DNA from: Solirubrobacterales bacterium | GTDB lineage: Bacteria; Actinomycetota; Thermoleophilia; Solirubrobacterales; 70-9 | Length of the DNA: 64,000 bases | Reading direction: 5' to 3' | Assembly: GCA_035573435.1 (NCBI GenBank) | Contig: DATMZR010000036.1 | Span: 62,001 to 126,000, forward strand | Part shown: positions 155 to 34,335 of the stretch, piece by piece | How the letters are laid out: each line of letters opens with the position of its first letter | Numbering within the stretch: the stretch's first letter is position 1 | The notes under the pieces: model-generated | Databases searched by the model: none | The model's input: only the letters and a program-made list of their open reading frames with translations | What the model was told of the DNA's origin: nothing | Position numbers and translations under genes: made by a program

Positions 155-967
155 ATGATCGATCGCCTGAAGCGCACGCGCCGCCGGGTTCTTCGCCGCT
201 GGCGCTACCGGCACGTGCGCGACTGGATCGTTGGCCCGCCCGACTTCGTCGGCGTCGGTACGCAGCGTTCCGGGACGACGTGGTGGTGGCGGCTGCTCTG
301 CGACCATCCCCGGGTCCACGAGCCGGCGGGCGGGAAGGAGATCCACTTCTTCGACAAGTACTTCGCGCGTGACTTCTCCGACGACGACGTGCGTGCCTAC
401 CACCGAATCTTCACCCGGCCCAAGGGAACGATCACCGGAGAGTGGTGTCCGCGCTACATGCACGACTTCTGGACGCCGGCTCTCCTGCGCAGGGCCGCGC
501 CCGACGCGAAGCTCCTGGTACTACTCAGAGACCCGGTCGGTCGCTATCGGTCGGGCCTCAGCCACGAGCTGGATGTGCTCCAGCGGGATGTGCGGGGTAA
601 GCGCCGCGGGTATGTGGGCGCGATGGACGCGAACGATGCCCTGAGCCGCAGCCTGTACGGCAGGCAGCTGCGGAGGCTGTTCGAGCACTTCGACCGAGCG
701 CAGGTCCTGGTGCTCCAATACGAGCAGTGCGTGCAGGACCCCAGAGCAGAGCTCCGGCGGACCTATGAGTTCGTCGGCGCCGACGTTCCCCACCACGTGC
801 CGACGTTTCTCACCGATCGAGCCGGTCAGTCGCATCCTCAGGTAGAGGTCATGGATGAGGTGACGGAGGCGGCACGCCACATCATCCACAGTGATCTGGC
901 CGAGCTGAAAGCCCTCGTTCCGGAGATCGACTTCAACCTCTGGCCCTCGTGCCAGGCCATCGGTTAG
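155..967 (+). CDS. PAPS-dependent sulfotransferase (carbohydrate type)
   Basis: Predicted to move a sulfuryl group from PAPS onto a hydroxyl or amine, most likely of a sugar chain given the neighbours. With the ATG at 155 the protein has 270 residues, normal for this family. The 5'-phosphosulfate loop GTQRSGTTW lies at residues 35-43 and the 3'-phosphate-binding region RDPVGRYRSG near residue 125, two hallmarks of the heparan/Golgi sulfotransferase fold. An arginine-rich N-terminus (residues 4-22) precedes the domain; no convincing membrane helix is seen. The frame stays open upstream to 65, but those residues look unrelated and there is no good ribosome site there. It converges tail-to-tail, 7 bases apart, with the lyase-like lipoprotein. 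The family call is solid; the acceptor is unknown. Confidence 0.85.
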   Translation: MIDRLKRTRRRVLRRWRYRHVRDWIVGPPDFVGVGTQRSGTTWWWRLLCDHPRVHEPAGGKEIHFFDKYFARDFSDDDVRAYHRIFTRPKGTITGEWCPRYMHDFWTPALLRRAAPDAKLLVLLRDPVGRYRSGLSHELDVLQRDVRGKRRGYVGAMDANDALSRSLYGRQLRRLFEHFDRAQVLVLQYEQCVQDPRAELRRTYEFVGADVPHHVPTFLTDRAGQSHPQVEVMDEVTEAARHIIHSDLAELKALVPEIDFNLWPSCQAIG

Positions 968-974
968 GAACCGC

Positions 975-2075
975 TCAGGGCTGGATCGCCCGCCGCAGCT
1001 CTTGGACCGATCGCCCCCCCCAGGGGTCGCTGGGCGAGTGGGCGAGGACCTCGACGTTCGCATAGTCCCGACTGACTGAGGGCAGGCTTACGTGGTTGTA
1101 AGGGCCGATCGAGAGCATGGCGTAGCTGTCGCCCCCGTTGAGCGTCCCCGAGGTGATCCTCTCCGTCAGGGGACGGTACCGCCAGTAGTTGCTGTCGCCG
1201 TTGGTATCACCCCAGAGCCGGAAAGCGCCCTCGGTCTGATCACTGTCAAATTGGACATCGATGCAGAGGCGCAGCCATTTTCCGCGCGGCACGTCCCGGA
1301 AGAAGTACTCCCTGACGTGCTGGCCCTGGTTGTAATTGTTAACGAGCTTCAGTCCATTCCGACCTTCGAGCATTGAGAGGATTGGACCCCCGTGGGTCTT
1401 GATCTGCCACACCTGTGAGTACTTGGTATTGCCGCCTCCGGGACCGACGTTGTACGGCAGCGGCGTGGGGGCTTGCAGGCGAACACCCATGCAGGTGAGG
1501 CTTCTCGTGCCGGCTCTGTAGCAGTAGAAGGTGTTGCTGCACGACTGGTTTATGAGTTGCGTTCGTGTCGAGTCTCGCTGGTGGTGGAAGTCCCATTCGC
1601 TCTGAGACACAACGCGCGAGCCTGAACGAGGTGTGCCGCTACCTCCTCTTACCCCGATGAAGCGCTGCGCCCTCTTGCCAAGATAGGTCACCTGTGTGTA
1701 CGAACTGCCCTTCTGAATCCACAGGTGGCCGGACGTCGGGAACCCGGCGGTCGACCGAACGTTGAGGCTTAGGCGTGGCAGGGTCTGCGACGCCGACAAC
1801 TTCGTTTCCTCGATCTTCAGCGTCCGGTACCCGTGGTGGACGATGCCGTTGATGTCCGGGTGCGGATCCCCGCCGGTGGCGTGATAGGAGATCAGGGGAT
1901 CCTGCTCGGCCTTGTAGCAGCACGCCCCCTGGTCGAAGGCATCCGAGACCCCACGCCATTCCGAGACCGGATTCGGATTCGTCACTGGATCGCTTTGGAC
2001 CTTGGTGCAGCCGGCGAGGGCGAGCGCGAGTAGGGCGAACAGAGCGCCCAACGAAGCGCGAGGTGCTTGTTTCAC
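975..2075 (-). CDS. Lipoprotein with heparin-lyase-like (concanavalin-like) fold
   Basis: A 366-residue exported lipoprotein. Residues 1-22 form a lipoprotein signal peptide ending in the lipobox LALAGC, so the Cys would be lipidated and the protein anchored outside the membrane. The rest resembles the jelly-roll polysaccharide lyase family that includes heparin lyase I: a segment around YSQVWQIKTHGGP followed by LSMLEGRNGLKL, and later GKWLRLCIDVQF with DTNGDSNYW. These are fold-level similarities; I cannot confirm catalytic residues, so it may bind rather than cleave a glycan. The start is GTG with AGAGAGG five bases upstream. A c-di-AMP riboswitch occupies its leader. The adjacent sulfotransferase and the C5-epimerase at 12.3 kb suggest a uronic-acid-containing substrate. 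Confidence 0.7.
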   Translation of the reverse strand: MKQAPRASLGALFALLALALAGCTKVQSDPVTNPNPVSEWRGVSDAFDQGACCYKAEQDPLISYHATGGDPHPDINGIVHHGYRTLKIEETKLSASQTLPRLSLNVRSTAGFPTSGHLWIQKGSSYTQVTYLGKRAQRFIGVRGGSGTPRSGSRVVSQSEWDFHHQRDSTRTQLINQSCSNTFYCYRAGTRSLTCMGVRLQAPTPLPYNVGPGGGNTKYSQVWQIKTHGGPILSMLEGRNGLKLVNNYNQGQHVREYFFRDVPRGKWLRLCIDVQFDSDQTEGAFRLWGDTNGDSNYWRYRPLTERITSGTLNGGDSYAMLSIGPYNHVSLPSVSRDYANVEVLAHSPSDPWGGRSVQELRRAIQP

Positions 2076-2089
2076 AATGCCTCTCTTGG

Positions 2090-2213
2090 TCGCTTACGGG
2101 GTTAGCTGACGGGCTAGCGCCGAAAGGAAGCGCTATGCGGACCACTTGCCACGATTCGCCCCGGGTGGGATCTGGGTCCCCCGTTCCCGCGGATATGTGG
2201 CGGGACTCAGCGA
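2090..2213 (-). promoter_or_regulatory. c-di-AMP (ydaO/yuaA) riboswitch for the lyase-like lipoprotein
   Basis: Read on the minus strand, the leader carries the ordered conserved blocks of the ydaO/yuaA class: ACGGGGGACCCA, then GGGGCGAATC, then CCCGTCAGCTAACCCCGTA. Outer arms TCGCT and AGCGA at the two ends can form P1. It ends a few bases before the AGAGAGG ribosome site of the GTG start at 2075. In this class c-di-AMP binding normally turns expression off. I compared with remembered consensus blocks, not a covariance model. Confidence 0.88.
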
Positions 2214-2256
2214 GAAGTTGCGCAACCCTAGCAAGACCTGCAGACGAAACTCACAA

Positions 2257-2300
2257 TTCACTAACGGAAATACGCAGATTCACTAACAGAAAATCGCATC
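2257..2300. repeat. Two tandem 22-bp direct repeats upstream of riboswitch
   Basis: The unit beginning TTCACTAACGGAAATACGCA is followed exactly 22 bp later by TTCACTAACAGAAAATCGCA. A two-turn helical period suggests head-to-tail protein binding. It sits in the 2076-2484 gap, which holds the riboswitch and presumably the lipoprotein promoter; I see no gene in that gap. Confidence 0.6.
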
Positions 2301-2484
2301 GGGCTGTCGAGCGAACCGGAGGCCGTGACCGGTCTCCACGGCGCTCGAAACCCGCGCGGGAGCACGAAGGCAAGGGTCTCGGCGGGCGAGACGGCTCAGC
2401 TGTGGACAGAGGGGAGTCCCCTGCGCTGGGCCATATCCTGCATTGAATGCGCGGCGAGACGCCGACGGAGTAGGGCGGCGCCAG

Positions 2485-3567
2485 ATGAAGGGTGAGCTTC
2501 ACGACAGCCTCGAGTCGATACTGCCGGAGTGGGAGGAGTTGTTCCGCTCCGACCCCGAAGCGACCCCGTTCATGTCACCCGAATGGGCACGAGCGTGGTG
2601 GCCGAGCTGGGGAAGTTCGAGCCGGCCGTGGACTGTCGTCGTTCGCGATAGCGGCCGGCTCGTGGGCCTCGCGCCGTTCATCCTCCGCAGACGCGGCCCC
2701 CTTCGGATCCTGGGGCGGCCCGGCTCACACCCGAGCCAGGACATCCTGGCCACGTCTGAGCTGCGGCCGGCTGTGGCGGAGGAGGTGGTTCGCGAGATCG
2801 TCAAGAGGCGCAGGGAGTGGGACCTTCTGGCGATCAGCTGGTTCCCCGAGACCTCGTCCATCCAGCCCTCGATGAAGCGGCAGGGGCTGCGCCTGCGGGA
2901 GCGCCGTACGGCCACCTACCCTCGGCTCGAGCTTCCTTCCAGCTTCGACGAGTATCTGGAATGGCTTCCGCGCAAGCGCAGAAAGGACCTCAGGCGCCAC
3001 CTTCGCCGACTCGACGACGGTGAGCTCGAGGTCGTTCGGGTCGGGGAGCCGGCGGCGATCGGCGCCGCGGTCGATCGCTGGCATGCCTTGAAGCTGAGCT
3101 GGTGGGAAGCCAAGGAGGACACGGAGATCCACCCCGGGCAGCGTGGCTCGCGATACGTCGGATTCCTGCGGGAGCTGATGCCGCTGATGGTCTCCGCCGG
3201 GCTCGGCGAGGTCTGGGAGCTCCGACACTCAGGACAGGTCGTGGGCGTCGAGGTCAGCCTGCTCGACCGGCGCAACTTCTACTCCTGGCAGGGAGGCTAT
3301 GACCTCGAGGTCGCTCACCTGGGACCGGGAAAGGTCGCGATCGGGGAGGGCATACGGGCTTCGATTGCCGCTGGGCGCCGCTACTACGACCTGATGCGGG
3401 GCGCGGACAGCTACAAGTACTGGTACGGATGCCGCGATCGAGAGAGCCGCTCTCTGCTGATTGGGAACAGCCGTCCGACGTCCCGCGCGGCCCTGCTCGC
3501 GATCGGTCCCTACGAGCGGCTTCGGGGTTCCTCGGGAACCGACTCGCCGGACGGGGCAGGGGACTAG
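2485..3567 (+). CDS. BioF2/CelD-type (GNAT/FemAB-like) acyltransferase
   Basis: A protein of about 360 residues resembling the BioF2-like acetyltransferase domain found in CelD/BcsL proteins of polysaccharide loci, with an N-acyltransferase fold shared with GNAT and FemAB enzymes. Supporting segments are the basic stretch LPRKRRKDLRRHLRRL, the core GEVWELRHSGQVVGVEV, YSWQGGYDLEVAHLGPGK, and the C-terminal YYDLMRGADSYKYWYG. It probably transfers an acyl or aminoacyl group to an envelope glycan or its precursor; the donor is unknown. ATG 2485 is preceded by GGAGTAGGG. An in-frame ATG at 2443 would add 14 residues without a clear ribosome site. Its 3' end overlaps the convergent ATP-grasp gene by 4 bases. 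Confidence 0.75.
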   Translation: MKGELHDSLESILPEWEELFRSDPEATPFMSPEWARAWWPSWGSSSRPWTVVVRDSGRLVGLAPFILRRRGPLRILGRPGSHPSQDILATSELRPAVAEEVVREIVKRRREWDLLAISWFPETSSIQPSMKRQGLRLRERRTATYPRLELPSSFDEYLEWLPRKRRKDLRRHLRRLDDGELEVVRVGEPAAIGAAVDRWHALKLSWWEAKEDTEIHPGQRGSRYVGFLRELMPLMVSAGLGEVWELRHSGQVVGVEVSLLDRRNFYSWQGGYDLEVAHLGPGKVAIGEGIRASIAAGRRYYDLMRGADSYKYWYGCRDRESRSLLIGNSRPTSRAALLAIGPYERLRGSSGTDSPDGAGD

Positions 3568-4721
3568 CCGGCCGCCGGGCGGTCGTTGTCGAGGCCGAGG
3601 CGGGCACGGCGCCCGCGAAACCGGCGCGTTACCGCTCGTGAGGAGAGCAGCAGGGCCGGCATCGGGTCATCTGATGCCCACATCGACCCCGCTCCAGACG
3701 GCATCCGGCGTCTCAGTAGTCGCCGAGGCAGGCCCTGCGCGGCGGCCGCCAAGTCCCCCTTCAGCCAGCGGTAGGTGACCCCGGTCGGGTAGGGGCGCAG
3801 CGGCGGACGTGGGCCGCCGGTGACGACCGCGTGCCACACCATGGGAAGGTTCACCCCGCACGCGAGCGCCAAGGGAAGACAGGCGTAGAAGCGGGGATTG
3901 ACGTCGATCAGGGTCTTCCCCCGCGCGTCGTCGACGAAATCGAGTTGAGCGAGCCCCCAGTAACCAGCCCGTCGCAGGAACTCGGCGGCACGCTCGACGA
4001 GCTCGGGGTCGGGCTCGACGCTCACGGCATAGTTGATCGACCCGGCCTTCGGCGGCCACGTCTCGCGGGCGAGCCCCTGGAACTGCGCAGCCACCTGCCC
4101 GTCCCGATCGAGGACGAGCTCGAGCGAGATCAGCGGGCCGGACGCGTGCTCTTGAACAAGGACCCGCTCCTCCGGGGGCACCTCTCGCCACTCCAGAGCC
4201 GCCCGCAGCTCCTCCTCGGTCTCGATGACCTTCGCCGAGCCCAGGCGCCCGACCGGAGCGGCGGGCTTGATCACGCTGGGAAGCGGTATCGACGACTCCA
4301 AGAGCTCGGCGACCGTCGCTTCGGCGATCGCAGCCGGGGACCTCAGTCCCACCTCGGCGGTAAGGGCCTCCAGCCCGGGCTTCTCGCGGATCTTGCGCAA
4401 AGCATCGTTCGTCGGGAACGGGAACATGACCTCGGGCGGCATTTCCGCCAAGTGCTCGACGATCGCGTCGATGCTCTCCTCCCGGCTGGGGTAGACGACG
4501 AGCGGGCCGCGCTCCCTTGCAACGCGCGCGATCAGGTCGACGTAGGCCTCGGGGCTCGCCACGGCGTCAGGACCGACCTCACGCTGCCTCGTGTAGCGCG
4601 ACCACAGTCCGGCGGCCGACCGATCGGGGCCGAGCGCGATCACCCCGATGCCGCCCCGGCCCAGCCCTCTTACGCCGGCGACCGCCGGGGCCAGCTGTAC
4701 ATCCGTTACCAGGGCGTCCAA
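3564..4721 (-). CDS. ATP-grasp carboxylate-amine ligase (first of three)
   Basis: A 385-residue ATP-grasp enzyme, expected to activate a carboxylate as acyl-phosphate and join it to an amine. The Rossmann-like N-terminus (VTDVQLAPAVAGVRGLGRGG) is followed by the ATP-grasp lobes, seen in VIKPAAPVGRLGSAKVIE near residue 150, RVLVQEHASG near 205 and the Mg-binding LIDVNPRFYACL near 290. It is related to the carbamoyl-phosphate-synthase-like ligases that often occur in actinobacterial polysaccharide loci. The best start is TTG at 4721; no in-frame ATG lies nearby, so the exact N-terminus is uncertain. It is divergent from the FAD oxidoreductase. Substrates cannot be read from sequence; uronic-acid carboxyls plus amino acids are a reasonable guess. 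Confidence 0.8.
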   Translation of the reverse strand: MDALVTDVQLAPAVAGVRGLGRGGIGVIALGPDRSAAGLWSRYTRQREVGPDAVASPEAYVDLIARVARERGPLVVYPSREESIDAIVEHLAEMPPEVMFPFPTNDALRKIREKPGLEALTAEVGLRSPAAIAEATVAELLESSIPLPSVIKPAAPVGRLGSAKVIETEEELRAALEWREVPPEERVLVQEHASGPLISLELVLDRDGQVAAQFQGLARETWPPKAGSINYAVSVEPDPELVERAAEFLRRAGYWGLAQLDFVDDARGKTLIDVNPRFYACLPLALACGVNLPMVWHAVVTGGPRPPLRPYPTGVTYRWLKGDLAAAAQGLPRRLLRRRMPSGAGSMWASDDPMPALLLSSRAVTRRFRGRRARLGLDNDRPAAG

Positions 4722-4774
4722 TGGGCGAGAAAGCGTAGGGCACGCCGCGGCTCATCTCGAGTGACTGGGGCCGT

Positions 4775-4785
4775 GTGATAATCAC
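4775..4785. promoter_or_regulatory. Palindromic operator candidate GTGATAATCAC
   Basis: An 11-bp perfect palindrome with a single central base lies in the roughly 100-bp divergent region between the ATP-grasp gene (minus) and the FAD oxidoreductase (plus). The position suits a repressor acting on both promoters. No regulator is identified. Confidence 0.35.
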
Positions 4786-4823
4786 GTCAAGGGAGGTCCG
4801 ACGATCGGACTTCGCCACGCTGC

Positions 4824-5990
4824 ATGGCACGACGCCCTCGCATAGTTGTGATCGGCGCCGGAATAATCGGCACGAGCATTGCCTCGCGGCTCGCGGGTCG
4901 CGGCGCATCCGTGACGATGGTCGAGGCAGCGCTCCCCGGCGCCGGGACGACGGGCACGAGCCTGGCCTGGGTGAACGCCAGCAGCAAGCTCGATACAAGC
5001 CGGGAGTACTTCGACCTCACCGTCAGAGCTACGGCTGAGCACCATGCCCTCGCGGACGCACTTGGCGAAACGCGCACCTTCCATCCCACGGGCAACATCG
5101 AGATCTCCCGCCAACCCGAGGACGCAGATCGCCTGAATTCGAAGGTCACACGGCTCCAGGAAAGGGGATATCGCGCCGACCTCGTTCCCATCCGAGAGCT
5201 GGGGCAGCTGGAACCGGGCCTCAAATTGCCCGCGACAGCCGTTGCCGCTTATTACGCCGACGAGGGGTGGGTGGACGGACCGGCGATGGCACGGGCGCTG
5301 CTGGAGCGCGCCAGGCGTTCGGGGGCAAAGGTTCTCCTGCAGACGGCGGCGAAGCACCTCGTGCTCAAGAACGACGCGGTCGCGGGAGTCGCCCTGGCGG
5401 GTGGGGAAGCAGTCCGCGCAGACACCGTCGTCGTTGCGACCGGCCCATGGACGCAGGACTTTCTCGCTCGCCTCGGTGTGGAGGTTCCGCTGGCGCATGG
5501 CGAGGACGAGGGGTCAAAGGCGTTCGGCCTCCTGGTCACCGTGCTGCCGACGGCGGGAAGTCCAAGCACGGTCCTGCATAGCCGTGAGGTCAACTGGGCG
5601 CCCCGGCCTTCAGGGCATGCCGTCCTTGCGAGCGCCGGGGCGGACCGCGTGATCGCAGGTGATCGCTCGGCGGAGACGGTCAGGGCGGCGGCGAACACGC
5701 TGCTGGAGCGGGCGGCGGATCTGAGCGCGCGCTTCGCCGACGCGAGCTTCGAGCAGGCGCAGATCGGCTTGCGCGCCCTCCCGATCGACGGGTGGCCGGT
5801 CTGCGGCTGGATCGACTCGATCGATGGTCTCTACGTGGTCGTGACGCACAGCGGGATCACCCTCGCTCCGCTTCTGTCCCAGCAGGTGGCGGAGGAGATC
5901 GTCGAGGGAGGCGAAGCATCCGCCCTGAGTCCGTTCCGGCCTTCGCGGTTCGATGGCGCCGCCGGCGAGCGCGCCCCGGCCGACCAATAG
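4824..5990 (+). CDS. FAD-dependent amine/amino-acid oxidoreductase (DAO/DadA family)
   Basis: A 388-residue flavoprotein. The N-terminal dinucleotide fold is clear: RIVVIGAGIIGTSIASRL at residues 5-22, with VTMVEA closing the second strand. The second FAD contact VVVATGPWTQDF lies near 205 and the C-terminal GLYVVVTHSGITLAPLL completes the D-amino-acid-oxidase-like fold. Family members oxidise amines, D-amino acids, sarcosine or opine-type secondary amines. Given a nearby opine-dehydrogenase-like protein, an N-alkyl amino acid substrate is possible, but this is inference. No ribosome site adjoins ATG 4824; GGGAGG lies about 30 bases upstream, so the N-terminus or leader is unusual. It converges with the second ATP-grasp gene. 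Confidence 0.85.
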   Translation: MARRPRIVVIGAGIIGTSIASRLAGRGASVTMVEAALPGAGTTGTSLAWVNASSKLDTSREYFDLTVRATAEHHALADALGETRTFHPTGNIEISRQPEDADRLNSKVTRLQERGYRADLVPIRELGQLEPGLKLPATAVAAYYADEGWVDGPAMARALLERARRSGAKVLLQTAAKHLVLKNDAVAGVALAGGEAVRADTVVVATGPWTQDFLARLGVEVPLAHGEDEGSKAFGLLVTVLPTAGSPSTVLHSREVNWAPRPSGHAVLASAGADRVIAGDRSAETVRAAANTLLERAADLSARFADASFEQAQIGLRALPIDGWPVCGWIDSIDGLYVVVTHSGITLAPLLSQQVAEEIVEGGEASALSPFRPSRFDGAAGERAPADQ

Positions 5991-6015
5991 CTTCAGCGGC
6001 GACCGGCCAGGACAC

Positions 6016-7212
6016 TCACCGCCGGAAGACCTTTCCGCGCAGCCAGGCGCGGAACGGGCCGAGGTCATCGCGAGCAAGCCAATGCAATTCCTGGACTCCG
6101 CGGACTGACTTGACCCACTCGCGCACGCTGACGCGATCCTCCCCCCGACTGGGGAAGACCGCGCGGAGGTCGCGCTCGTCCAGCCACTTCCTCCCATCCT
6201 GAGCCGCGGTATCACCCATCGGCTGCCCGGAAAGGTCCTGGTAACAGAGGCGAACGACGTCGAGACCGTTGGCGCCGGTGAAGAGACGGAACACGCTGCT
6301 GACCCGCGCGTTGACGTCCAGCACCTTGTACGTACCGTCGCGAACGTCGTGGCGCCATCCAACCCCACAGCAGCCGCGATATCCCAACGCAGTCATGAAA
6401 CGGTACGTCTGACTCGCAACTGTGTCGTTCGACTCAACCTCCGCCAACGATGCGGTTCCCATCGAGGACAACTGGCGGAGCTTCTTTCCGGTGAACACGA
6501 CGCCATGACCGTCGTCGCGTCCGAAATAGCCATTGCACATCCAGACGTTGTCGACACCGCCTGGGATGTGTTCCTGCAGTACGAAGTTCCATGTTTCGCG
6601 GGACACGGCTTCTTCAATCGCGTCGTCCAGCTCGGGCTGCGACCGAGCGATCGTGTTTTCTGGGGCGGGCAGAAACGGATCGGCCGCTTTTACGACCAGC
6701 GGAAACCCCGTCCTTGCCGCAAATTCGTCGATCTCCGCGCGAGAGGTTGGTTGCACGGTGACGGGCGTTGGAATGTCGTGCTGCGTCGCCAGCACGTGCA
6801 TGTCCCACTTGTTCAGCAGCCTCCCCACAATCGAGGAGGCAGGTCGAGGAAACTGAAAATAGTCGGCCAAAGCCTCGCTGTGGCGTTCGAAAAAGATCGC
6901 AACCCAATCGTTGGTCGTGAAAAGGATCGGGTGCGAACCGTGCTTCTTCGCCAGCTTCGACCCGACATCCCGAAGGAGCTCAACCGAATCCAGCTCGGGT
7001 CGCTCAAAGAAATCCCATAGCGTCCTGTCCTCCCAGTAGCGCGAAGAAAATACGGGTGACAGAGCCGTATTTTCCGGCGCGACCGGATACACGGAGACTC
7101 CGAGGCGGCCAAGCGTGCGGGCAATGGCGAGGGGTCCGTAGCTCTGGCGGCCGCGGAACACGACCACGGCGGGTACCTGGGTATCAACGACTGGTACCTG
7201 GGTATCGATCAA
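6016..7212 (-). CDS. ATP-grasp ligase (second of three), coupled to the opine dehydrogenase-like gene
   Basis: A 398-residue ATP-grasp protein of the same class as its neighbours. Visible parts are the N-terminal FRGRQSYGPLAIARTLGRLG, the ATP lobe FPLVVKAADPFL near residue 172, FVLQEHIPGGVDNVWM near 205 and the metal-binding VLDVNARVSSVFRLFTGANG near 300. The stop of the upstream opine-dehydrogenase-like gene is only 3 bases before the TTG start, so the two are almost certainly translated together. The first 14 codons contain a 21-bp duplication (DTQVP twice); GTG codons just after it are alternative starts. It likely links a carboxylate and an amine supplied by, or resembling, the partner's product. 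Confidence 0.8.
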   Translation of the reverse strand: MIDTQVPVVDTQVPAVVVFRGRQSYGPLAIARTLGRLGVSVYPVAPENTALSPVFSSRYWEDRTLWDFFERPELDSVELLRDVGSKLAKKHGSHPILFTTNDWVAIFFERHSEALADYFQFPRPASSIVGRLLNKWDMHVLATQHDIPTPVTVQPTSRAEIDEFAARTGFPLVVKAADPFLPAPENTIARSQPELDDAIEEAVSRETWNFVLQEHIPGGVDNVWMCNGYFGRDDGHGVVFTGKKLRQLSSMGTASLAEVESNDTVASQTYRFMTALGYRGCCGVGWRHDVRDGTYKVLDVNARVSSVFRLFTGANGLDVVRLCYQDLSGQPMGDTAAQDGRKWLDERDLRAVFPSRGEDRVSVREWVKSVRGVQELHWLARDDLGPFRAWLRGKVFRR

Positions 7213-7215
7213 GGT

Positions 7216-8466
7216 CTATCGCACCCGCTGGGCCTCGAGAGCCGCCTCGGCGCTGTACCACCGGATGAGCTCGTCCGGAGAGAAGATCCCGTGGTTCTGT
7301 GGAGTTGGGAGATCTGCCACGTCGGGTCCTTCCAGCCGGCCGTCGGCGAGGTAGCCCTTGTCGAGAACGCCCTGCGCCCACGAAATGACCTCATCGATCA
7401 TTGGTGTCTCGACCGCGGCGATGTCCGCGAGCGCACGGGTGATCACCAGCCCGTAGGGGACGTCCTCCGTGAGGGAGCGGTATTGGAAGTTCGGAGTGAA
7501 TCTCCCGGGCGTCAGCTCGACCATCGGTGTGCGCCGCTCTTGGATGGGGCCGGTTCGAAAGCACGTGGCGACCGTGCTCGAGTCGGCGGTCACGTGAGCG
7601 TATGAGGCTCGCAGCCAGTCGTGAACGGACTGGACGTGGTCGAGGCGCAGCGCCCTCTCGGTCTTGTCTCTCAGCGCGTGAGCGACAGCAAGTGCCTCGG
7701 CAGACATGCGTTCAACGACCTCTCCCATCTCATCAGTCGCCTCTGCGTACAAGAAGGGGACCGAATCGGCGTCGTACTCCTCGCCGCTCCAGGACCGAAA
7801 ATGCCCGTACATCAGGCCTGTGTGTATGACCTGGCCCTGGTTGCCGAGAGTCAGGCTCAGGAAGCTCGCTGCGGGCGCGAGCCGCGTTCCAAAGATCTGG
7901 GACAGCTTGCGCGCCAGATGTTCACCGGAATCGGGCGGCAGCGATGCGATGGTCCCCTCCGCCTTCGCTGCGCCGATGTTCACGGCCTCACCCGGCTTCA
8001 CGATTCGTGTCGACCAGGGGAGGGTCTGCAGGCCAAAGATCGTCTGGCGTTTGGAGCCGCGACGAGGAAGATGCCGCGCAGCCTCGAACTCGAACCCGCC
8101 TCGCGTCGGCAGGCACCCCACGGGGGTTTCATCGCCGAGGTGCGTCCCTATCCGGCGCAGGACCTCAGCGTGAGCAAAAGCCGGTACGGCGAGCAAAACC
8201 ATATCTGCGTTCGGGATCACCTCCGCGGGATCTGAGGAGATGGTTCGCAGCCGATCCGCCTCCGCCTGGATGACCCCTGTGGAGCGGAGACCGTCGCGTG
8301 ACCGGCCCCCGTGAAGGAGGTCGGCTCTCTCTGGTGAGCTGACCAGCCAGTCGACGTGGGCGGTGAAACGCTGTGAAAGGACTACCGCGAGGGCGTGCCC
8401 GGCGTTGCCGCCTCCGCAGATCGTGATGACGCGGGTTTCGTCGGCTGATTCACCGGTCTCGCTCAT
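7216..8466 (-). CDS. NAD/NADP octopine/nopaline (opine) dehydrogenase family protein
   Basis: A protein of about 416 residues. The N-terminal nucleotide-binding fold starts with VITICGGGNAGHALAVVLSQ, and the helical C-terminal domain has the family-typical segment YRSLTEDVPYGLVITRALAD near residue 340. Opine dehydrogenases condense an amino acid with a 2-oxo acid and reduce the imine with NAD(P)H, giving a secondary-amine dicarboxylate. Fold and family are well supported; the true reaction is unknown. ATG 8466 is chosen; an in-frame GTG at 8496 would add 10 residues. It is the first gene of a two-gene unit with the ATP-grasp ligase 3 bases downstream and is divergent from the methyltransferase. 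Confidence 0.8.
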   Translation of the reverse strand: MSETGESADETRVITICGGGNAGHALAVVLSQRFTAHVDWLVSSPERADLLHGGRSRDGLRSTGVIQAEADRLRTISSDPAEVIPNADMVLLAVPAFAHAEVLRRIGTHLGDETPVGCLPTRGGFEFEAARHLPRRGSKRQTIFGLQTLPWSTRIVKPGEAVNIGAAKAEGTIASLPPDSGEHLARKLSQIFGTRLAPAASFLSLTLGNQGQVIHTGLMYGHFRSWSGEEYDADSVPFLYAEATDEMGEVVERMSAEALAVAHALRDKTERALRLDHVQSVHDWLRASYAHVTADSSTVATCFRTGPIQERRTPMVELTPGRFTPNFQYRSLTEDVPYGLVITRALADIAAVETPMIDEVISWAQGVLDKGYLADGRLEGPDVADLPTPQNHGIFSPDELIRWYSAEAALEAQRVR

Positions 8467-8575
8467 CGGGCGCCGAACGCCTCGGTTACGCCGCACTGGC
8501 TTTGCATGCGCTCGATCATAGGTGGCCCTGCGGCCGATCGTGCCGCCCTCCGGGTGCCGGCGTCAGCCGGTGTCC

Positions 8576-8592
8576 CTTTAGGCGCGCTAAAG
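8576..8592. promoter_or_regulatory. Inverted-repeat operator candidate CTTTAG-GCGCG-CTAAAG
   Basis: Perfect 6-bp arms flank a 5-bp centre in the 181-bp divergent region between the opine-dehydrogenase-like gene and the methyltransferase. A GC-rich imperfect hairpin (GGTGCCGGC...GCCGGTGTC) lies just upstream. The site could regulate either direction. Confidence 0.35.
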
Positions 8593-8647
8593 GTTTTCCC
8601 GTGAACCTGGTATGCGCGCGAATCGGCGCTGGTTAGGACTGAGCGAT

Positions 8648-9436
8648 ATGGGTAGCAAGTTTGTGGGCATGAGCAGGGACGAAACAGAAGTCATTCGTCA
8701 TCACTGGGACCGGCGCGCTCCGACCTTCGACGAGCATGCCGGCCACGGGCTCTTCAGCGACGACCAACGACGCGCCTGGCTCGAGTTGTTCGCCCGCTTC
8801 TCAGAGCGGCCGCACGAAGTCCTCGACGTCGGGTGTGGAACCGGCTTCATCGCTCTCAGATTCGCGGAGCTCGGACACGCGGTCACGGGCATCGATCTTT
8901 CGCCTCTGATGATCGACCGCGCCGAAAGCAAGGCCCAGAGGGCGGGACTCGAGATCGACTACCGGGTTGGAGACGCGAGCGCGCTCGATTACGAGGACGA
9001 GACCTTCGACGTCGTCGTCGCACGCCACGTCGTCTGGAACCTGCCCAGTCCTGAGCTGGGCGTCGCGGAATGGCTCCGCGTCCTTCGCCCTGGGGGCCGG
9101 CTCCTTGTCATAGAAGGCAAATGGGCCGACAATCAGGCCGCGGAGACCCACAGGCAACGGAAGAAGCGCTTGAAGGACAGATTCAAGGACGCCATCGTCG
9201 AAATCTCCGTGCGCAGCGGTATTCGTCCCAAGCGACTGCGCAGGACTCACCGTTTTTATCGCCGGGTGGAGAGGGACCTGCCATTTTCGGGCGGACCAAC
9301 AGCGGACCGCCTTGTCGACCTACTGCGGCGGCTGTCTCTGGCCGACATCGAAGTCGAGCCTCTCATGGATCCGACTCTCTGGGGTGAGGAGCTGGAGTTC
9401 CCGCGGTATCTCGCTTCGGCGACCCGGCTGGACTGA
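8648..9436 (+). CDS. Class I SAM-dependent methyltransferase
   Basis: About 262 residues with the standard class I fold. Motif I VLDVGCGTGFIALRFAELG sits near residue 58, the acidic second strand GIDLSPLM follows, then DYEDETFDVVVARHVVWNLP near 110-130 and the post-motif LRVLRPGGRLLVIEGKW. This is the ubiquinone/small-molecule type rather than a nucleic-acid enzyme. Start choice: ATG 8648 has TAGGAC eight bases upstream, consistent with the leaderless style seen elsewhere; ATGs at 8612 and 8669 are alternatives. Lying between the opine-dehydrogenase-like gene and the third ATP-grasp gene, it may methylate a component of the same product. Confidence 0.8.
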   Translation: MGSKFVGMSRDETEVIRHHWDRRAPTFDEHAGHGLFSDDQRRAWLELFARFSERPHEVLDVGCGTGFIALRFAELGHAVTGIDLSPLMIDRAESKAQRAGLEIDYRVGDASALDYEDETFDVVVARHVVWNLPSPELGVAEWLRVLRPGGRLLVIEGKWADNQAAETHRQRKKRLKDRFKDAIVEISVRSGIRPKRLRRTHRFYRRVERDLPFSGGPTADRLVDLLRRLSLADIEVEPLMDPTLWGEELEFPRYLASATRLD

Positions 9437-9497
9437 CAGCGACTGACTGAGGCGCCAGGGAGGTGACCTGCCGACCGGAAGGCTAGGGTACGCCGCC

Positions 9498-10724
9498 GTG
9501 ACCCCGGACGAGAATCCTCCGGCGGTCACCTTTGGCGGCGAAGGGATCGCCTTTCCGGTTGTGCGCAGCCTCGACCGGGCGGGCGTGAGGGCCTATGCCG
9601 TCGGAGGCGACCCGGAGTACAACCCGATTGCCTACTCGCGCCACTGCGCCGGGTACACCGACCTGGGCAGCAAGGAGGGGGTGGTGGACCGCTGGCTGGA
9701 CTGGCTGGCCGGGGAGGCCCCGCGCGGCGCCGTGTTGATGCCGTGCAACGACGACAGCCTGGACCTGATCGTTCGCCACCGAGCGACGCTCGAGGAACTG
9801 GGATACGTGCCGGTGGAAGCGGACGACGAGGTGCTGGCGGCGATGCTCGACAAGGAGCGGACGTACGAGCTCGCCCGCGCGGCCGGCGTCCCGACACCCC
9901 GCACGTGGACCATCGGGAGCGGCAGTGACCTCGACGAGTCGATCGAGGAGATCGGTTACCCGTGCGCGCTGAAACCCCTCCACACCCACCTGTTCGCGCG
10001 GGTCTTCGGCGTCGGATTCAAGCTGCTGGTGGCGAACGACCGCCGCGAGCTGGAGGAGGGGCTGAGCCGGATGACGGCCCTTGGACTGGAGATGGCCGTC
10101 ACCGAGATCATTCCGGGACCCGAGACCGAGCTGCTCTCCTACTGCGGCTACCTGGACGAGCGCGGCGAACCGCTGACCCACTTCACCTTCCACAAGCTCC
10201 GGCAGTACCCGCCCCATTTCGGTCTCGGGTGCTACGTCGTCAGCGATTGGAACCAGGAGGCGATCGACGCCGGGCTCCACTTCCTCCGGGGGGTGGGGCT
10301 TCGCGGCCTCTTCCATGTGGAGTTCAAGCGTGATCCCCGCGACGGCCAGCTGAAGCTCTTGGAGTGCAACCATCGCTTCACGATCGAGACGATGTTCGCC
10401 GCTACCGACCTGCCGTTACTGACCTATAACCGACTCCTGGGCCGCCCGCTGCCGCCCGCCCGCCCTTACAAGTCGGGAGTGCACCTGTGGAGCCCGGTGC
10501 CGGACGTTCGGGCCTTCCTTGCGTACAGACGGCGCGGAGAGCTCACCTTCGGACGGTGGCTGTTGAGCCTGATGCACCGGCAGCGCTTTCATGCCTTCAG
10601 GTGGGACGACCCGCTGCCCACGATCCGCCACCACCTCACGCTGGTGGGGCGGGTCATACGGCGGCTGCTCTTCGGACGACGGCAGGTGCGCGAGGAGGAC
10701 CCGCTGCTCGCGTCCGGGCGGTAA
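9498..10724 (+). CDS. ATP-grasp ligase (third of three)
   Basis: A 408-residue ATP-grasp enzyme. The N-terminal FGGEGIAFPVVRSLDRAGV is followed by central domain segment MLDKERTYELARAAGVPTP near residue 118, ATP-binding YPCALKPLHTHLF near 153, ITEIIPGPETEL near 197 and the metal site LKLLECNHRFTIETMF near 285. The last feature, LLECNHR, replaces the DVNPR/DVNAR seen in the other two copies, so this is a distinct subgroup. The GTG start is preceded by TAGGGT at 9484-9489, a plausible -10 box. The flippase gene follows 58 bases later on the same strand, tying this ligase to the polysaccharide export genes. Confidence 0.8.
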   Translation: MTPDENPPAVTFGGEGIAFPVVRSLDRAGVRAYAVGGDPEYNPIAYSRHCAGYTDLGSKEGVVDRWLDWLAGEAPRGAVLMPCNDDSLDLIVRHRATLEELGYVPVEADDEVLAAMLDKERTYELARAAGVPTPRTWTIGSGSDLDESIEEIGYPCALKPLHTHLFARVFGVGFKLLVANDRRELEEGLSRMTALGLEMAVTEIIPGPETELLSYCGYLDERGEPLTHFTFHKLRQYPPHFGLGCYVVSDWNQEAIDAGLHFLRGVGLRGLFHVEFKRDPRDGQLKLLECNHRFTIETMFAATDLPLLTYNRLLGRPLPPARPYKSGVHLWSPVPDVRAFLAYRRRGELTFGRWLLSLMHRQRFHAFRWDDPLPTIRHHLTLVGRVIRRLLFGRRQVREEDPLLASGR

Positions 10725-10782
10725 CGGTCGGGACGCGGACCTGCACCGGTAATTGGGGCACCCCGTAACGTGCCCACCGGTT

Positions 10783-12336
10783 ATGAACGAGAAGGACTCT
10801 CAGGCTCCCCGCGAGCTGACCGGGACGGTCGTGCGCGGCGTCGGCTTGGCCGGTGGCGGATACCTGATCACTCAGGTGATCAACTTCGCCATCTACCTGG
10901 TGCTGGCGCGGCTCGCCACGCCCACCGATTTCGGCCAACTGGCGGCGGGCGCCGTGGTCGTGCTCGCCGGGCTCTCGTTGGCCGATTCCGGCCTCAACGC
11001 GGCAGTCGTCCAGCGCCGCGACCGGATCGAGGAGGCGGCGAGCACTGCCGTAGTGGCAGTCGTGCTCAGCGGCGTCCTGTTCACGGCCGCGGCGCTCGCG
11101 ATCTCCCCGCTGATCGGCCGCCTATTCCACAGCCACGAGGTGACCCTGGTGGCGGCTGCCTCCTCCGGCTGGATCCTCATCCGCTCGTTCGCGATCATCC
11201 CGGACTCCATGCTCCAGCGGCGCTTCTCGTTCCTGCGCCGGGCGGTGATCGACCCTCTGGGCATGGTTGTGTTCGGGGCGGTCGCAATCGCGACCACCGC
11301 GGCGGGCATGGGGGTCTGGGGGCTCGTCCTTGGCAACTACGCCCAGTTCACGACCATGGCCGTGTCGTCGTGGGTGCTGGGGCGGTGGCGACCGAAGCTG
11401 CGGCTCGCGTCGGTGGCGATGTGGCGGGAGCTGGTCGCCTTCGGGCGCCACGTCATGACTTCGAACATGCTCGTTCGGCTCGGTGGGGTGATCCAAACGT
11501 CGCTCATCGGGCGCCTCTTCGGCACGGACACGTTGGGCCAGTTTCGATACGGGTCTCGCGTCACCTCGTCACCACTGGGGGCATTGATGAACGCAGGTTC
11601 CTACGTTCTCTATCCGGCCCTTTCGCGGATCTCGGACGACGCGCGGAGATTCGAGCGCGGATTCCTGCGCTCGGTCCGCCTGACGTGCGCGACCGCGATG
11701 CCGTTGAGCTTCGCGCTGCTGCCGCTCGGGGTCCCCATCGCGCTCGTCGTCTTCGGGCCGCAGTGGCGGGAGGCGGGCGAGCTCATCAGTGCGATGTTCG
11801 CCTACTCCGGAGCGCGCGCCTTCATCTCCACCACCAGGGAGACGTTCAAGGCGTCGGGTCGGTCGGAGCGCTTGACGAGGATCCAGCTCGTCTCCTTCGT
11901 GCTCACCCTGGGCCTGATCGTCGCCTTCTCATGGATCGGACCGGTCGGGGTTGGCATCGGCATCTCTCTCAGTTCGATCGGCACCGCGGTGTACGCGACA
12001 CGAGCCGTCTCCCCGATCACCGGGGTCCCGGTGCGACGCATCGCAGCCGAGATCTGGCCGCCCATGGTTGCGTCGGCGGTGATGGCGGCCGCAGTCTTCC
12101 TGGCGCAGCTCGCAGTCGAGCCAGAGGCTCATGGCACCGCGGTGGGGATGATCCTGTTGGCCGGGGATGTGTTGTTGGCAGGCGTTGTCTATCTCGGAGC
12201 GCTGACCGTGATCGCGCCGGGGACCGCTCGGGAGCTGCGGGAGATCATGAGCCAGCTTCGTGAGCGCCTGCCGTGGCGCCGGGCTTCCGCCTCCGCCGTC
12301 GAGCCGGAATCGAACGCAGCTGTTCCCAACCCCTGA
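10783..12336 (+). CDS. Wzx-type polysaccharide flippase (MOP superfamily)
   Basis: A protein of about 517 residues with 12 or more hydrophobic helices, of the Wzx/MviN-like polysaccharide transporter type. The opening VRGVGLAGGGYLITQVINFA and the later LARLATPTDFGQLA are typical of this family, which flips undecaprenyl-diphosphate-linked oligosaccharides across the inner membrane. The C-terminal 40 residues are hydrophilic and basic. ATG 10783 is used; the frame is open to a TTG at 10753, but that would add an unlikely N-terminus. It ends 10 bases before the convergent C5-epimerase gene. Confidence 0.88.
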   Translation: MNEKDSQAPRELTGTVVRGVGLAGGGYLITQVINFAIYLVLARLATPTDFGQLAAGAVVVLAGLSLADSGLNAAVVQRRDRIEEAASTAVVAVVLSGVLFTAAALAISPLIGRLFHSHEVTLVAAASSGWILIRSFAIIPDSMLQRRFSFLRRAVIDPLGMVVFGAVAIATTAAGMGVWGLVLGNYAQFTTMAVSSWVLGRWRPKLRLASVAMWRELVAFGRHVMTSNMLVRLGGVIQTSLIGRLFGTDTLGQFRYGSRVTSSPLGALMNAGSYVLYPALSRISDDARRFERGFLRSVRLTCATAMPLSFALLPLGVPIALVVFGPQWREAGELISAMFAYSGARAFISTTRETFKASGRSERLTRIQLVSFVLTLGLIVAFSWIGPVGVGIGISLSSIGTAVYATRAVSPITGVPVRRIAAEIWPPMVASAVMAAAVFLAQLAVEPEAHGTAVGMILLAGDVLLAGVVYLGALTVIAPGTARELREIMSQLRERLPWRRASASAVEPESNAAVPNP

Positions 12337-12346
12337 TGCCGCGGGG

Positions 12347-13324
12347 CTAGGCCGCCGGATCCTCGCCGAGCTCAGCCGTTCGCTCGCCCGGCACACTGCT
12401 GGTCCGGTCCCAGGGCAGGCGACCCGCGAGGAGCCGGTTGCGAGGAACCAGGATTCGGAATGTCGTCTTGTGGGCAAGGGCGCGCATCCTGGCCAGGCGT
12501 CGCTCCTGGTAGGCCTCGAACACCGAACAGGCGCTCGCGAACTCGGGGCGGTCGGTGAGCAGAGCCATTGCCTTGAGCTGCTCTATATGGAGGCGGTGAT
12601 ATGCGGGACTGGCGACGTTGGTCACGGCATGGGGGAAGAGGTCGTAGCGCGACCAGTAGCCCGTGTCGTAACGGTCGAGCATCCCGGCAAGGGTCTCGAC
12701 ACTCTCGTCATAGAGCCGCTGGGCGTCCGGGTCGCCGAGGGCGCGGGCCGCGTCGAAGCACCCCCAGATCGCGAACATGCCGCCGTTGAGCACGCAGGAG
12801 GGCGGATCGGTTGGGTACTCCTCCAGGAAGATCCCATGGTCGAGTTGGGCCATCGCGCCGCCCGCGCGCGGCGTCCGGCTGAGCGGTCCGATCGCCTTCA
12901 AGGCCGCTTCTGCGAACCGCTCCTCCGACGTCTCTTGGTAGATGCGGATGAGTAGGCTCGCGCCCTCGCCCTGCGCCATCGCGGAGACCCATGGCGGGCG
13001 GAGGGGGAACGTGTGAGGGAAGGTGTACCTGTGAAGCCACGCTCCGGCAGCCTGCCCGTCCGCCTCCTGACGGTTGACCAACCACTCCGCTGCCGAGGTC
13101 GCGACACTGCGCCAGGCCTCCCCGTCGCCGGCGAGGTAGCGCTCGTAGTAGGCGAGGCCGCGTTGCGCGACAGAAACGTAGGACTCCTGGTGCGATGCCA
13201 GCCAGGCCGGGGGCCATTCGGGAGAGGGAGCCTTGACACGGAAGTCGATCGGGTAGCCTCGCGTCTCCGTGGCGCTCAGCTGGGCGCCCATAGGCAGATC
13301 GAAAGAACGCAGTTGGCGGGGCAT
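12347..13324 (-). CDS. D-glucuronyl C5-epimerase family protein
   Basis: About 325 residues matching the C-terminal catalytic domain of D-glucuronyl C5-epimerases, which convert D-glucuronate to L-iduronate within a polymer. Seen directly: GLAYYERYLAGDGEAW early on, ADGQAAGAWLHRYTFPHTFP and PPWVSAMAQGEGASLLIRIY in the middle, LEEYPTDPPSCVLNGGMFAI, and YDTGYWSRYDLFPHAVTNVA with YHRLHIEQLKA at the end. The paired tyrosines and Glu around YWSRYDL correspond to the conserved active-site region of the eukaryotic enzyme. Bacterial homologues with this activity are known. No signal peptide is visible, so the site of action is unclear. ATG 13324 is used, leaving 26 bases to the divergent glycosyltransferase start; a longer reading would overlap that gene. 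Confidence 0.85.
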   Translation of the reverse strand: MPRQLRSFDLPMGAQLSATETRGYPIDFRVKAPSPEWPPAWLASHQESYVSVAQRGLAYYERYLAGDGEAWRSVATSAAEWLVNRQEADGQAAGAWLHRYTFPHTFPLRPPWVSAMAQGEGASLLIRIYQETSEERFAEAALKAIGPLSRTPRAGGAMAQLDHGIFLEEYPTDPPSCVLNGGMFAIWGCFDAARALGDPDAQRLYDESVETLAGMLDRYDTGYWSRYDLFPHAVTNVASPAYHRLHIEQLKAMALLTDRPEFASACSVFEAYQERRLARMRALAHKTTFRILVPRNRLLAGRLPWDRTSSVPGERTAELGEDPAA

Positions 13325-13350: not shown

Positions 13351-14520
13351 ATGAGCAGGACCCCAAAGGCACGAAAGCTTCGCCATCTGACCCTCGTCGA
13401 CCGGATCGGCTCCTTCGGCGGGGGAGAGCGGCTTGCCGCCGAGTTCTCGAAGCGGCTCTCACCTGAACGCTTCGACAGAATTCTTTGTGCAACACGCTGG
13501 GGACCCGAGGTCGAGTCGCGGCCGACCCGGGCGCAGGCGGTCGACGATCTCTCTGAGCACGGCGTCAGGTTCGTCGGCCTCGACCGCAGGCACGCCCTGG
13601 GCCTGCGGTCGTGGCGAGAGCTCCTGCTGTTGATGCGCCGGGAGCGGATCGACGTCCTGCACGCGCACAAGTTCGGCTCAAATCTGTGGGCCGCCCTCCT
13701 GGGGCCACGCGCGGGCGTGCCGCTGATCGTCGCCCACGAGCACACGTGGTCGTTCGAGGGCGGCGCCCAGCGGCGCTTCATCGACCGCCAGGTGATCGCC
13801 CGTCGCTGCGACATGGTGGTGGCGGTCTCTCGCGAGGACCGGCGCAGGCTGGTCGAGCTCGAGGGGCTACCCCCGGAGCGCGTGGTCTACATCCCGAACG
13901 GCATCCCCGCGCCGCCACCTCCGACGGGAGCCGTGCAACGCGCCGGCCTCGGCCTCCACGAGGACGATCTCGTGGTTGGGACGGTGGGCGTCCTTCGGCC
14001 CCAGAAGGCGCTGGACGTCCTCGTCAAAGCGGCCGCGATCCTGCGCGGGGAGTTTCCCAGCCTGCGCGTCCTCATGGTCGGCGCCGGACCGGACTACGGG
14101 ACGCTCGAGAAGCTGATCGATGACCTCGACCTCTCGAACACGGTCAGCATGCTCGGCTTCCGCACGGACGTCCCCGAGCTGCTGCCGATCTTCGACGTGG
14201 CAGCATCTTCATCCGACTTCGAGGGCAGTCCCCTGGCGGTCCTGGAGTACATGGAGGCGGGCCTGCCCGTGGTCTCGACCAGGGTCGGCGGGGTCCCTGA
14301 CCTGGTCGAAGACGGGGTCACGGGCCTGCTGGTGGACCGGGGGGATCCCGGGGCGCTCGCGCGCGCGATCGCTGAGCTGCTCCGCGACCCCGACCGGCGC
14401 GCTCGGATGGGACATGAAGCCCGTGAACGGCGGCGGCGCGAGTTCGACATCAATCACACGGTCGAGCGCATCGAGCAGCTCTACGAGGATCTCTGGCGCG
14501 ACAAGGCTGGAGCCGGCTAG
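13351..14520 (+). CDS. Family 4 glycosyltransferase
   Basis: A 389-residue GT-B fold retaining glycosyltransferase. The N-terminal acceptor domain starts with VDRIGSFGGGERLAAEFSKR. The donor domain has VGTVGVLRPQKALDVLVKA near residue 210, VLMVGAGPDYGTLEKL, and the GT4 signature SSDFEGSPLAVLEYMEAGLP near 288-306 with the conserved E-x7-E pair, followed by VGGVPDLVEDGVTGLLV. It probably adds a hexose or uronic acid to the lipid-linked repeat unit. It is divergent from the C5-epimerase, and its end overlaps the convergent Wzy-like gene by 4 bases. Confidence 0.88.
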   Translation: MSRTPKARKLRHLTLVDRIGSFGGGERLAAEFSKRLSPERFDRILCATRWGPEVESRPTRAQAVDDLSEHGVRFVGLDRRHALGLRSWRELLLLMRRERIDVLHAHKFGSNLWAALLGPRAGVPLIVAHEHTWSFEGGAQRRFIDRQVIARRCDMVVAVSREDRRRLVELEGLPPERVVYIPNGIPAPPPPTGAVQRAGLGLHEDDLVVGTVGVLRPQKALDVLVKAAAILRGEFPSLRVLMVGAGPDYGTLEKLIDDLDLSNTVSMLGFRTDVPELLPIFDVAASSSDFEGSPLAVLEYMEAGLPVVSTRVGGVPDLVEDGVTGLLVDRGDPGALARAIAELLRDPDRRARMGHEARERRRREFDINHTVERIEQLYEDLWRDKAGAG

Positions 14521-32199: not shown

Positions 32200-32292
32200 G
32201 CAGCCCCGCGGCCGGTCCTGAACCGCGGCGCGCATCCGGGCCAGCAAATGAGGGGAGCGGGCCCGGAACGCGCCGCGGCCCGCGCGCCGGTA

Positions 32293-34314: not shown

Positions 34315-34335
34315 CCCGGCAAAGCTACTGGCCCG

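What the first reader, a model, noticed from the sequence alone, without database searches (positions are those of the whole stretch)
155..13324. Bacterial glycosaminoglycan-like logic: C5-epimerase, sulfotransferase and lyase-fold protein in one locus
Heparan-type glycans need a glucuronyl C5-epimerase and PAPS sulfotransferases, and are cut by heparin-lyase-fold enzymes. All three occur within 13 kb, alongside a flippase, Wzy-like, Wzz-kinase and UDP-uronate-type epimerase genes. An actinobacterium making an iduronate-containing sulfated capsule would be a notable undescribed pathway.
Basis: inference. Interest (0 to 1): 0.75.

Follow-up and report, generated by a model that had tools for sequence, protein, structure and literature searches.

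The report
Predicted sulfated iduronate capsule gene cluster
A soil-type actinobacterium carries a surface-sugar gene cluster that includes a close bacterial cousin of the animal heparan-sulfate epimerase next to sulfotransferase and uronate-lyase genes, so it may build a sulfated, iduronate-containing coat, a kind of polymer so far proven mainly in animals.

Summary
The window (Solirubrobacterales, Actinomycetota) carries a PAPS-type sulfotransferase (155-967), a PF14099 jelly-roll polysaccharide-lyase homologue (975-2051) and a GlcE-type D-glucuronyl C5-epimerase (12347-13291) inside a Wzx/Wzy/Wzz-kinase polysaccharide locus. The epimerase is the solid part: all five human GlcE catalytic residues are present and invariant in 16 relatives, and the predicted fold superposes on human GlcE at 1.7 A. 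It is the helical domain alone, without an export signal. In relatives it overlaps by 4 bp, or is fused in one reading frame to, a NodB-type deacetylase, next to Wzx. Two sulfotransferase orthologues sit in that same cluster in genus g2. Lyase homologues lie within 10 kb in all seven family genomes that have both genes. Three more lyase copies and the missing deacetylase lie upstream of the window. Limits: the triple combination occurs only in this genome. The lyase looks closer to glucuronan lyase than to heparin lyase, on weak evidence. Nothing shows a GAG backbone, iduronate or sulfate. Best reading: a Wzx/Wzy surface polysaccharide whose lipid-linked repeat is deacetylated, C5-epimerised and sulfated in the cytosol before flipping, unlike the Golgi order in animals.

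The parts
155..967 (+). Sulfotransferase 1 (PAPS type), no signal peptide
   Evidence: Pfam PF13469 3e-17, PF00685 2e-14; nearest PDB heparan sulfate 3-OST-3A1 1e-13; orthologue 49% identical in the G004 cluster
975..2051 (-). Divergent PF14099 polysaccharide-lyase homologue with a lipobox (LAGC)
   Evidence: PF14099 25 bits, below cut-off; aligned with three upstream paralogues and relatives; sequence
2485..3567 (+). GNAT (Acetyltransf_6 / FemAB-like) protein
   Evidence: PF13480 5e-29
3564..4643 (-). ATP-grasp ligase-like protein
   Evidence: PF15632 9e-8
4848..5990 (+). FAD-dependent amino-acid-oxidase-like oxidoreductase
   Evidence: PF01266 2e-48
6016..7167 (-). ATP-grasp ligase-like protein
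   Evidence: PF02786 7e-7
7216..8466 (-). Octopine (opine) dehydrogenase homologue
   Evidence: PF02317 9e-29; octopine dehydrogenase 3c7a 8e-39
8648..9436 (+). SAM-dependent methyltransferase
   Evidence: PF08241 2e-28
9498..10724 (+). ATP-grasp-like protein
   Evidence: PF13549 2.5e-4, below cut-off; NCBIfam PRK12767-type 1e-9; homologue in L036
10783..12336 (+). Wzx-type flippase
   Evidence: PF13440 6e-52; orthologue 40% identical in G004
12347..13291 (-). GlcE-type D-glucuronyl C5-epimerase, helical domain only, cytosolic
   Evidence: PF06662 1.1e-44; GlcE 1.9e-28 with E499, Y500, N510, Y560, Y578 conserved; AlphaFold model pLDDT 88, 1.7 A to 6hzz over 216 columns
13351..14520 (+). GT4 glycosyltransferase
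   Evidence: PF00534 1e-40; orthologue 54% in G004
14517..15914 (-). Wzy-type polymerase
   Evidence: PF04932 3e-20; orthologue 39% in G004
15925..17559 (-). Wzz chain-length protein fused to tyrosine-kinase-like ATPase
   Evidence: PF02706 3e-9 with P-loop ATPase domains; orthologue 44% in G004
17698..18843 (+). GT4 glycosyltransferase
   Evidence: PF00534 8e-34; orthologue 56% in G004
18844..19812 (-). SDR-type nucleotide-sugar epimerase/dehydratase
   Evidence: PF01370 2e-50; 36% to the G004 cluster SDR
19862..20566 (-). Sortase at the conserved edge of the cluster
   Evidence: PF04203 2e-29; orthologue 53% in G004
30086..31558 (+). Possible initiating phosphoglycosyltransferase (membership in this pathway uncertain)
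   Evidence: PF02397 6e-58; a PF02397 gene also flanks the G004 cluster

Best explanation
This is a Wzx/Wzy-dependent surface (capsule or exopolysaccharide) locus for a glucuronate-containing heteropolysaccharide. A GlcE-type C5-epimerase converts GlcA to iduronate, a NodB-type deacetylase frees an amino sugar, and one or two sulfotransferases add sulfate. These three enzyme types carry no export signal, so they most likely act in the cytosol on the undecaprenyl-linked repeat before Wzx flips it. Wzy then polymerises the repeat, the Wzz-kinase sets chain length, and exported PF14099 lyases trim or release the polymer. Shown: the genes, the GlcE fold and catalytic residues, the epimerase-deacetylase coupling and the conserved neighbourhoods. 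Inferred: iduronate in the polymer, sulfation of the same polymer, the order of steps and the role of the lyases.
For: Epimerase: PF06662 152 bits; GlcE 1.9e-28 by sequence and 6e-49 by profile; human E499, Y500, N510, Y560 and Y578 all present and invariant in 16 relatives (numbering checked against the residue list in PMC13308652); model pLDDT 88 with human GlcE as top PDB match at 1.7 A, and the AGE-family epimerases far behind. Coupling: the epimerase stop overlaps the deacetylase start by 4 bp in seven loci and the two are one open reading frame in L032. Conserved module in G004 (L112): sortase, SDR, GT4, Wzz-kinase, Wzy, GT4, epimerase, deacetylase, Wzx, then sulfotransferases, with 11 orthologues at 36-59% identity to this genome. 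This genome also holds the deacetylase and second sulfotransferase orthologues, in a second segment of the same contig 40 kb away. Lyase link: PF14099 lies within 10 kb of the epimerase in 7 of 7 family genomes with both, counting for this genome the window copy 75 to 10 kb class distance given in the full report; four lyase copies here. Supplies: APS kinase and UDP-glucose-dehydrogenase-type genes exist in the genome. Precedent for sulfated iduronate made on a lipid carrier: Halobacterium (PMC13308652, PMC11980604); for sulfotransferases in Wzx/Wzy loci: synechan (PMC8205485).
Against: No polymer chemistry. Sulfotransferases are abundant in this family (13 in this genome), so proximity of one is weaker evidence; they flank the epimerase in only 5 of 12 epimerase-bearing family genomes, all in two genera, and the one in G003 gave no match to the window's. 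Here the deacetylase is not next to the epimerase. Human R563 is replaced by Phe/Tyr in this subfamily, so the substrate may differ. The GT4 enzymes give no evidence of a GlcA/GlcNAc backbone. The lyase model is poor (pLDDT 56) and the window copy is below Pfam's cut-off.
Confidence: 0.5

Rival explanations
1. An iduronate-containing capsule or EPS without sulfate: the epimerase, deacetylase and lyases serve one uronate polymer, while the sulfotransferases modify something else (lipid, other glycan) and are neighbours by genome crowding.
For: Epimerase with deacetylase and lyases but no sulfotransferase is the arrangement in genera g10 and g12; sulfotransferases are numerous genome-wide and cluster elsewhere.
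Against: Two sulfotransferases orthologous to those of this genome sit inside the epimerase-Wzx cluster in G004, G015 and G022, at 49-59% identity for G004.
Confidence: 0.25
2. A fully heparan-like polymer: alternating GlcA/IdoA and glucosamine, N-deacetylated, epimerised and sulfated, and cut by heparin-lyase-like enzymes, as the first reader suggested (a special case of the best explanation).
For: Deacetylase-epimerase fusion or 4-bp overlap, sulfotransferase nearest in PDB to HS 3-OST, epimerase nearest to GlcE.
Against: No glycosyltransferase recognisable as heparosan-type; lyase nearer glucuronan lyase; no dedicated N-sulfotransferase recognised; the cluster is split in this genome; NodB deacetylases act on many amino-sugar polymers.
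Confidence: 0.12
3. The lyases belong to foraging on environmental polyuronates and only happen to be near a biosynthetic cluster.
For: They are exported or lipid-anchored and form a tandem array next to housekeeping arg and tRNA-synthetase genes.
Against: Close to the epimerase in 7 of 7 genomes with both, against 1-3% expected per genome under random placement; no uptake or catabolic genes seen in this locus.
Confidence: 0.15
4. The PF06662 protein acts on a different substrate or as a different epimerase (for example on a glycoprotein or teichuronic-type oligosaccharide) and makes no iduronate polymer.
For: R563 not conserved; beta domains of animal GlcE absent; archaeal Agl32 shows that uronyl C5-epimerases also work on short protein-linked glycans (PMC13308652).
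Against: All five catalytic residues conserved and constant association with Wzy and Wzz-kinase genes.
Confidence: 0.15

Closest known systems
Animal D-glucuronyl C5-epimerase GlcE (PDB 4pw2, 6hzz) in heparan sulfate synthesis
   Same: Helical catalytic domain, all five catalytic residues, 32-35% identity over the matched region, 1.7-2.6 A superposition
   Different: No beta-hairpin or beta-sandwich domains, no signal or membrane anchor, R563 replaced, sits in a bacterial Wzx/Wzy locus
Bermanella marisrubri RED65_08024 glucuronyl C5-epimerase (Raedts 2013, as cited in PMC4432689)
   Same: Bacterial GlcE homologue with a GlcE-like mechanism according to PMC13308652
   Different: Its own polymer is unknown; not compared by sequence here
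Halobacterium salinarum Agl32 with VNG1056C/VNG1057C sulfotransferases (PMC13308652, PMC11980604)
   Same: Iduronate made on a lipid-linked oligosaccharide before flipping, with sulfation; works like the mechanism proposed here
   Different: N-glycan rather than polymer; Agl32 lacks the GlcE catalytic residues, so it is not the same enzyme class
Synechan xss cluster of Synechocystis (PMC8205485) and predicted wps-1 cluster of Actinoplanes (PMC13390465)
   Same: Wzx/Wzy/Wzz locus with two sulfotransferases; wps-1 is also actinobacterial
   Different: No C5-epimerase or uronate lyase mentioned in the passages read; synechan composition lists no uronic acid; wps-1 product not verified
PL20 glucuronan lyase (2zzj) and PL13 heparin lyase I (3ilr)
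   Same: PF14099 / jelly-roll lyase fold
   Different: Low-confidence model and low identity; substrate unknown

Membership tests
GlcE-type D-glucuronyl C5-epimerase (PF06662) | PF06662 catalytic domain above curated cut-off | tested here: met
   152.6 bits vs 23.3
GlcE-type D-glucuronyl C5-epimerase (PF06662) | Catalytic residues E499, Y500, N510, Y560, Y578 | tested here: met
   All aligned, invariant in 16 relatives, numbering verified
GlcE-type D-glucuronyl C5-epimerase (PF06662) | GlcE helical fold | tested here: met
   6hzz 3e-13, rmsd 1.7 A
GlcE-type D-glucuronyl C5-epimerase (PF06662) | GlcA to IdoA activity on a polymer or oligosaccharide | not testable with these tools
   Needs enzyme assay
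Heparan-sulfate-type (GAG) biosynthesis | Alternating uronate/amino-sugar backbone polymerase | tested here: inconclusive
   Only GT4 enzymes plus Wzy seen; linkage not predictable
Heparan-sulfate-type (GAG) biosynthesis | N-deacetylase associated with the C5-epimerase | tested here: met
   NodB deacetylase overlapping or fused in relatives; orthologue on same contig here. Substrate not shown
Heparan-sulfate-type (GAG) biosynthesis | N- and O-sulfotransferases acting on the polymer | tested here: inconclusive
   Sulfotransferases present and syntenic in g2; acceptor unknown
Heparin lyase I (PL13) | PL13-like sequence or structure as best match | tested here: not met
   Glucuronan lyase 2zzj ranks first, heparinase I third, on a pLDDT 56 model; profile search gives no significant PDB hit
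PF14099 polysaccharide lyase | Pfam curated score | tested here: inconclusive
   Window copy 25 bits, below 29.9; paralogues at 50-59 bits pass
Agl32-type epimerase | Lacks GlcE catalytic residues | tested here: not met
   Residues present here, so it is not Agl32-type, though it may work on a lipid-linked glycan in the same way

The most novel reading that the evidence does not exclude
Solirubrobacterales make a bacterial heparan-like polymer: a GlcA/amino-sugar repeat that is N-deacetylated, C5-epimerised to iduronate and sulfated while still on the lipid carrier, giving a sequence-defined sulfated iduronate polymer with its own dedicated lyases.
Probability: 0.2. Interest if true: 0.85.

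Novelty: new variant of a known kind. Interest (0 to 1): 0.55.

Why it matters
PMC4432689 (2015) states that sulfation had not been observed in prokaryotic GAGs, PMC8205485 and PMC13390465 state that sulfated bacterial polysaccharides are established only in cyanobacteria, and PMC13308652 (2026) knows one characterised bacterial GlcE. A bacterial pathway that pairs a GlcE-type epimerase with a deacetylase and sulfotransferases on a lipid-linked repeat would give uniform iduronate/sulfate patterns instead of the mixed ones made in the Golgi. It would offer small soluble enzymes for making heparin-like material and would bear on where animal GAG enzymes came from.

Tried and rejected
A single-sequence PDB search with the window lyase gave only chance hits, and the profile search reached glucuronan lyase only at E 0.7. 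The GH127-like toroid upstream (L003 8548-9906) was considered as a second epimerase: only 16 bits to PF06662 and no useful PDB match, so it is left open. The idea that all three genes co-occur generally was rejected: only pairs are conserved. A literature search for an opine-amide precedent found nothing in the held library. Raedts 2011 and 2013 are not held, so the Bermanella enzyme could not be compared directly. The co-localisation product of 3e-13 is not used as a p-value because the genomes are related; the independent lineages are at most g1, g10 and two epimerase subtypes in g12.
Full report
What is there. The window is bases 62001-126000 of a 143 kb contig of a 2.58 Mb genome. Named contigs with the closest epimerases are Solirubrobacterales and Thermoleophilaceae metagenome assemblies, so the host is very probably Solirubrobacterales (Actinomycetota). 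A codon-usage gene call with Pfam scans gives, in order: sulfotransferase 155-967, PF14099 protein 975-2051, a block of GNAT, ATP-grasp, FAD oxidase, ATP-grasp, octopine dehydrogenase, methyltransferase and ATP-grasp-like genes (2485-10724), Wzx, C5-epimerase, GT4, Wzy, Wzz-kinase, GT4, SDR and sortase (to 20566).

The epimerase. It scores 152 bits to PF06662 and 1.9e-28 to zebrafish GlcE. PMC13308652 lists the human catalytic residues as E499, Y500, N510, Y560 and Y578. They correspond to E169, Y170, N180, Y227 and Y242 of the first row of alignment A1 and are invariant in 16 sequences, the other 15 being 32-51% identical to the window's (numbering recomputed). The AlphaFold model (pLDDT 88) matches only GlcE structures strongly (1.7 A to 6hzz). 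The protein is the helical domain alone and begins without a signal peptide. Human R563 is Phe or Tyr here, so specificity is probably not identical. Other members of the order encode a different, signal-bearing form (L021, L022).

Neighbours in relatives. In most relatives the gene after the epimerase is a NodB-type polysaccharide deacetylase. The genes overlap by 4 bp in L112, L113, L025, L030, L033, L034 and L035, and are one reading frame in L032 (L112/L028, and L113/L030, are the same genomes fetched twice). The most complete arrangement is G004 (L112): sortase, SDR, GT4, Wzz-kinase, Wzy, GT4, epimerase, deacetylase, Wzx, three sulfotransferases, two beta-helix proteins, a fourth sulfotransferase and an initiating sugar transferase. 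Eleven of these have orthologues here at 36-59% identity. In this genome the deacetylase and the second sulfotransferase orthologues lie on the same contig about 40 kb upstream, with a GT4, a GNAT, an ATP-grasp and a toroid protein (L003), so the ancestral cluster looks split by housekeeping genes.

The lyases. Three further PF14099 genes lie in tandem just upstream of the window (L002 16290-19828). The window copy is the most divergent, below Pfam's cut-off, with a lipobox. Among the 50 family genomes, 12 have the epimerase and 13 a PF14099 gene; 7 have both, and in all 7 they share a contig: the nearest lyase is about 2-7 kb away in six of them and about 11 kb in this genome. Presence association: Fisher p = 0.007, not corrected for relatedness. 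The predicted fold is a jelly roll whose best match is glucuronan lyase, then PL7, then heparinase I, but the model is weak (pLDDT 56). I read it as a polyuronate lyase of unknown substrate, not as a heparin lyase.

The sulfotransferases. The window enzyme is nearest to HS 3-O-sulfotransferases among solved structures; the second one is nearest to an uncharacterised bacterial sulfotransferase. Sulfotransferases are common in this family. Their link to the epimerase rests on synteny in genus g2 (G004, G015, G022) and on this genome; a different sulfotransferase adjoins the epimerase in G003. An APS kinase gene is present, as are UDP-glucose-dehydrogenase-type genes.

How it most likely works. 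Epimerase, deacetylase and sulfotransferases all start without export signals as read by eye (sequences), while the lyases have signal or membrane-anchor sequences. The simplest scheme is modification of the undecaprenyl-linked repeat in the cytosol, flipping by Wzx, polymerisation by Wzy and trimming outside by the lyases. This parallels Halobacterium, where Agl32 makes iduronate on a dolichol-linked tetrasaccharide and two sulfotransferases modify the glycan, although Agl32 is a different enzyme. Iduronate and sulfate in the product are inferred, not shown.

Correction of wording. Where the summary, the rivals and the evidence field say 'within 10 kb in 7 of 7', the exact statement is: six genomes at 2-7 kb and this genome at about 11 kb (window copy) to 13 kb (tandem copies), all on one contig.

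Known or new. GlcE homologues in bacteria, sulfated Wzx/Wzy polysaccharides in cyanobacteria and a predicted sulfated actinomycete EPS are each on record. I found no report of the combination (searches; the library lacks most subscription papers). I therefore call it a new variant of a known kind.

Noticed in passing
2485-10724: An 8 kb block with three ATP-grasp-like genes, a convincing octopine dehydrogenase homologue (8e-39), an FAD oxidase, a methyltransferase and a GNAT lies between the lyase and Wzx. Relatives such as G004 lack it. It could make an opine-type amino acid and amide-link it to a uronate carboxyl (inference from known opine amides in some O-antigens, own knowledge).
   Followed up: partly
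L032 10001-11719 (also L013): C5-epimerase and NodB deacetylase in a single open reading frame, a natural fusion of the two activities.
   Followed up: partly
L003:8548-9906: Toroid protein (GH127-like 5e-7, trace PF06662 signal 0.007) between an SDR and a GNAT in the upstream half-cluster; possibly a distant second epimerase or a lyase.
   Followed up: partly
L112:14666-16860: Two right-handed beta-helix proteins, one with RTX repeats, take the place of the PF14099 lyases in the G004 cluster; possibly an alternative lyase type.
   Followed up: no
L111 (G006 contig 1, 1376000-1395900): Similar locus with PF14099, three sulfotransferases, two deacetylases and Wzy/Wzz-kinase but no C5-epimerase in that genome.
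   Followed up: no
30086-35268: A second polysaccharide group in the window: initiating sugar transferase, a second Wzy-like protein with a weak TPR signal and an SDR epimerase.
   Followed up: no
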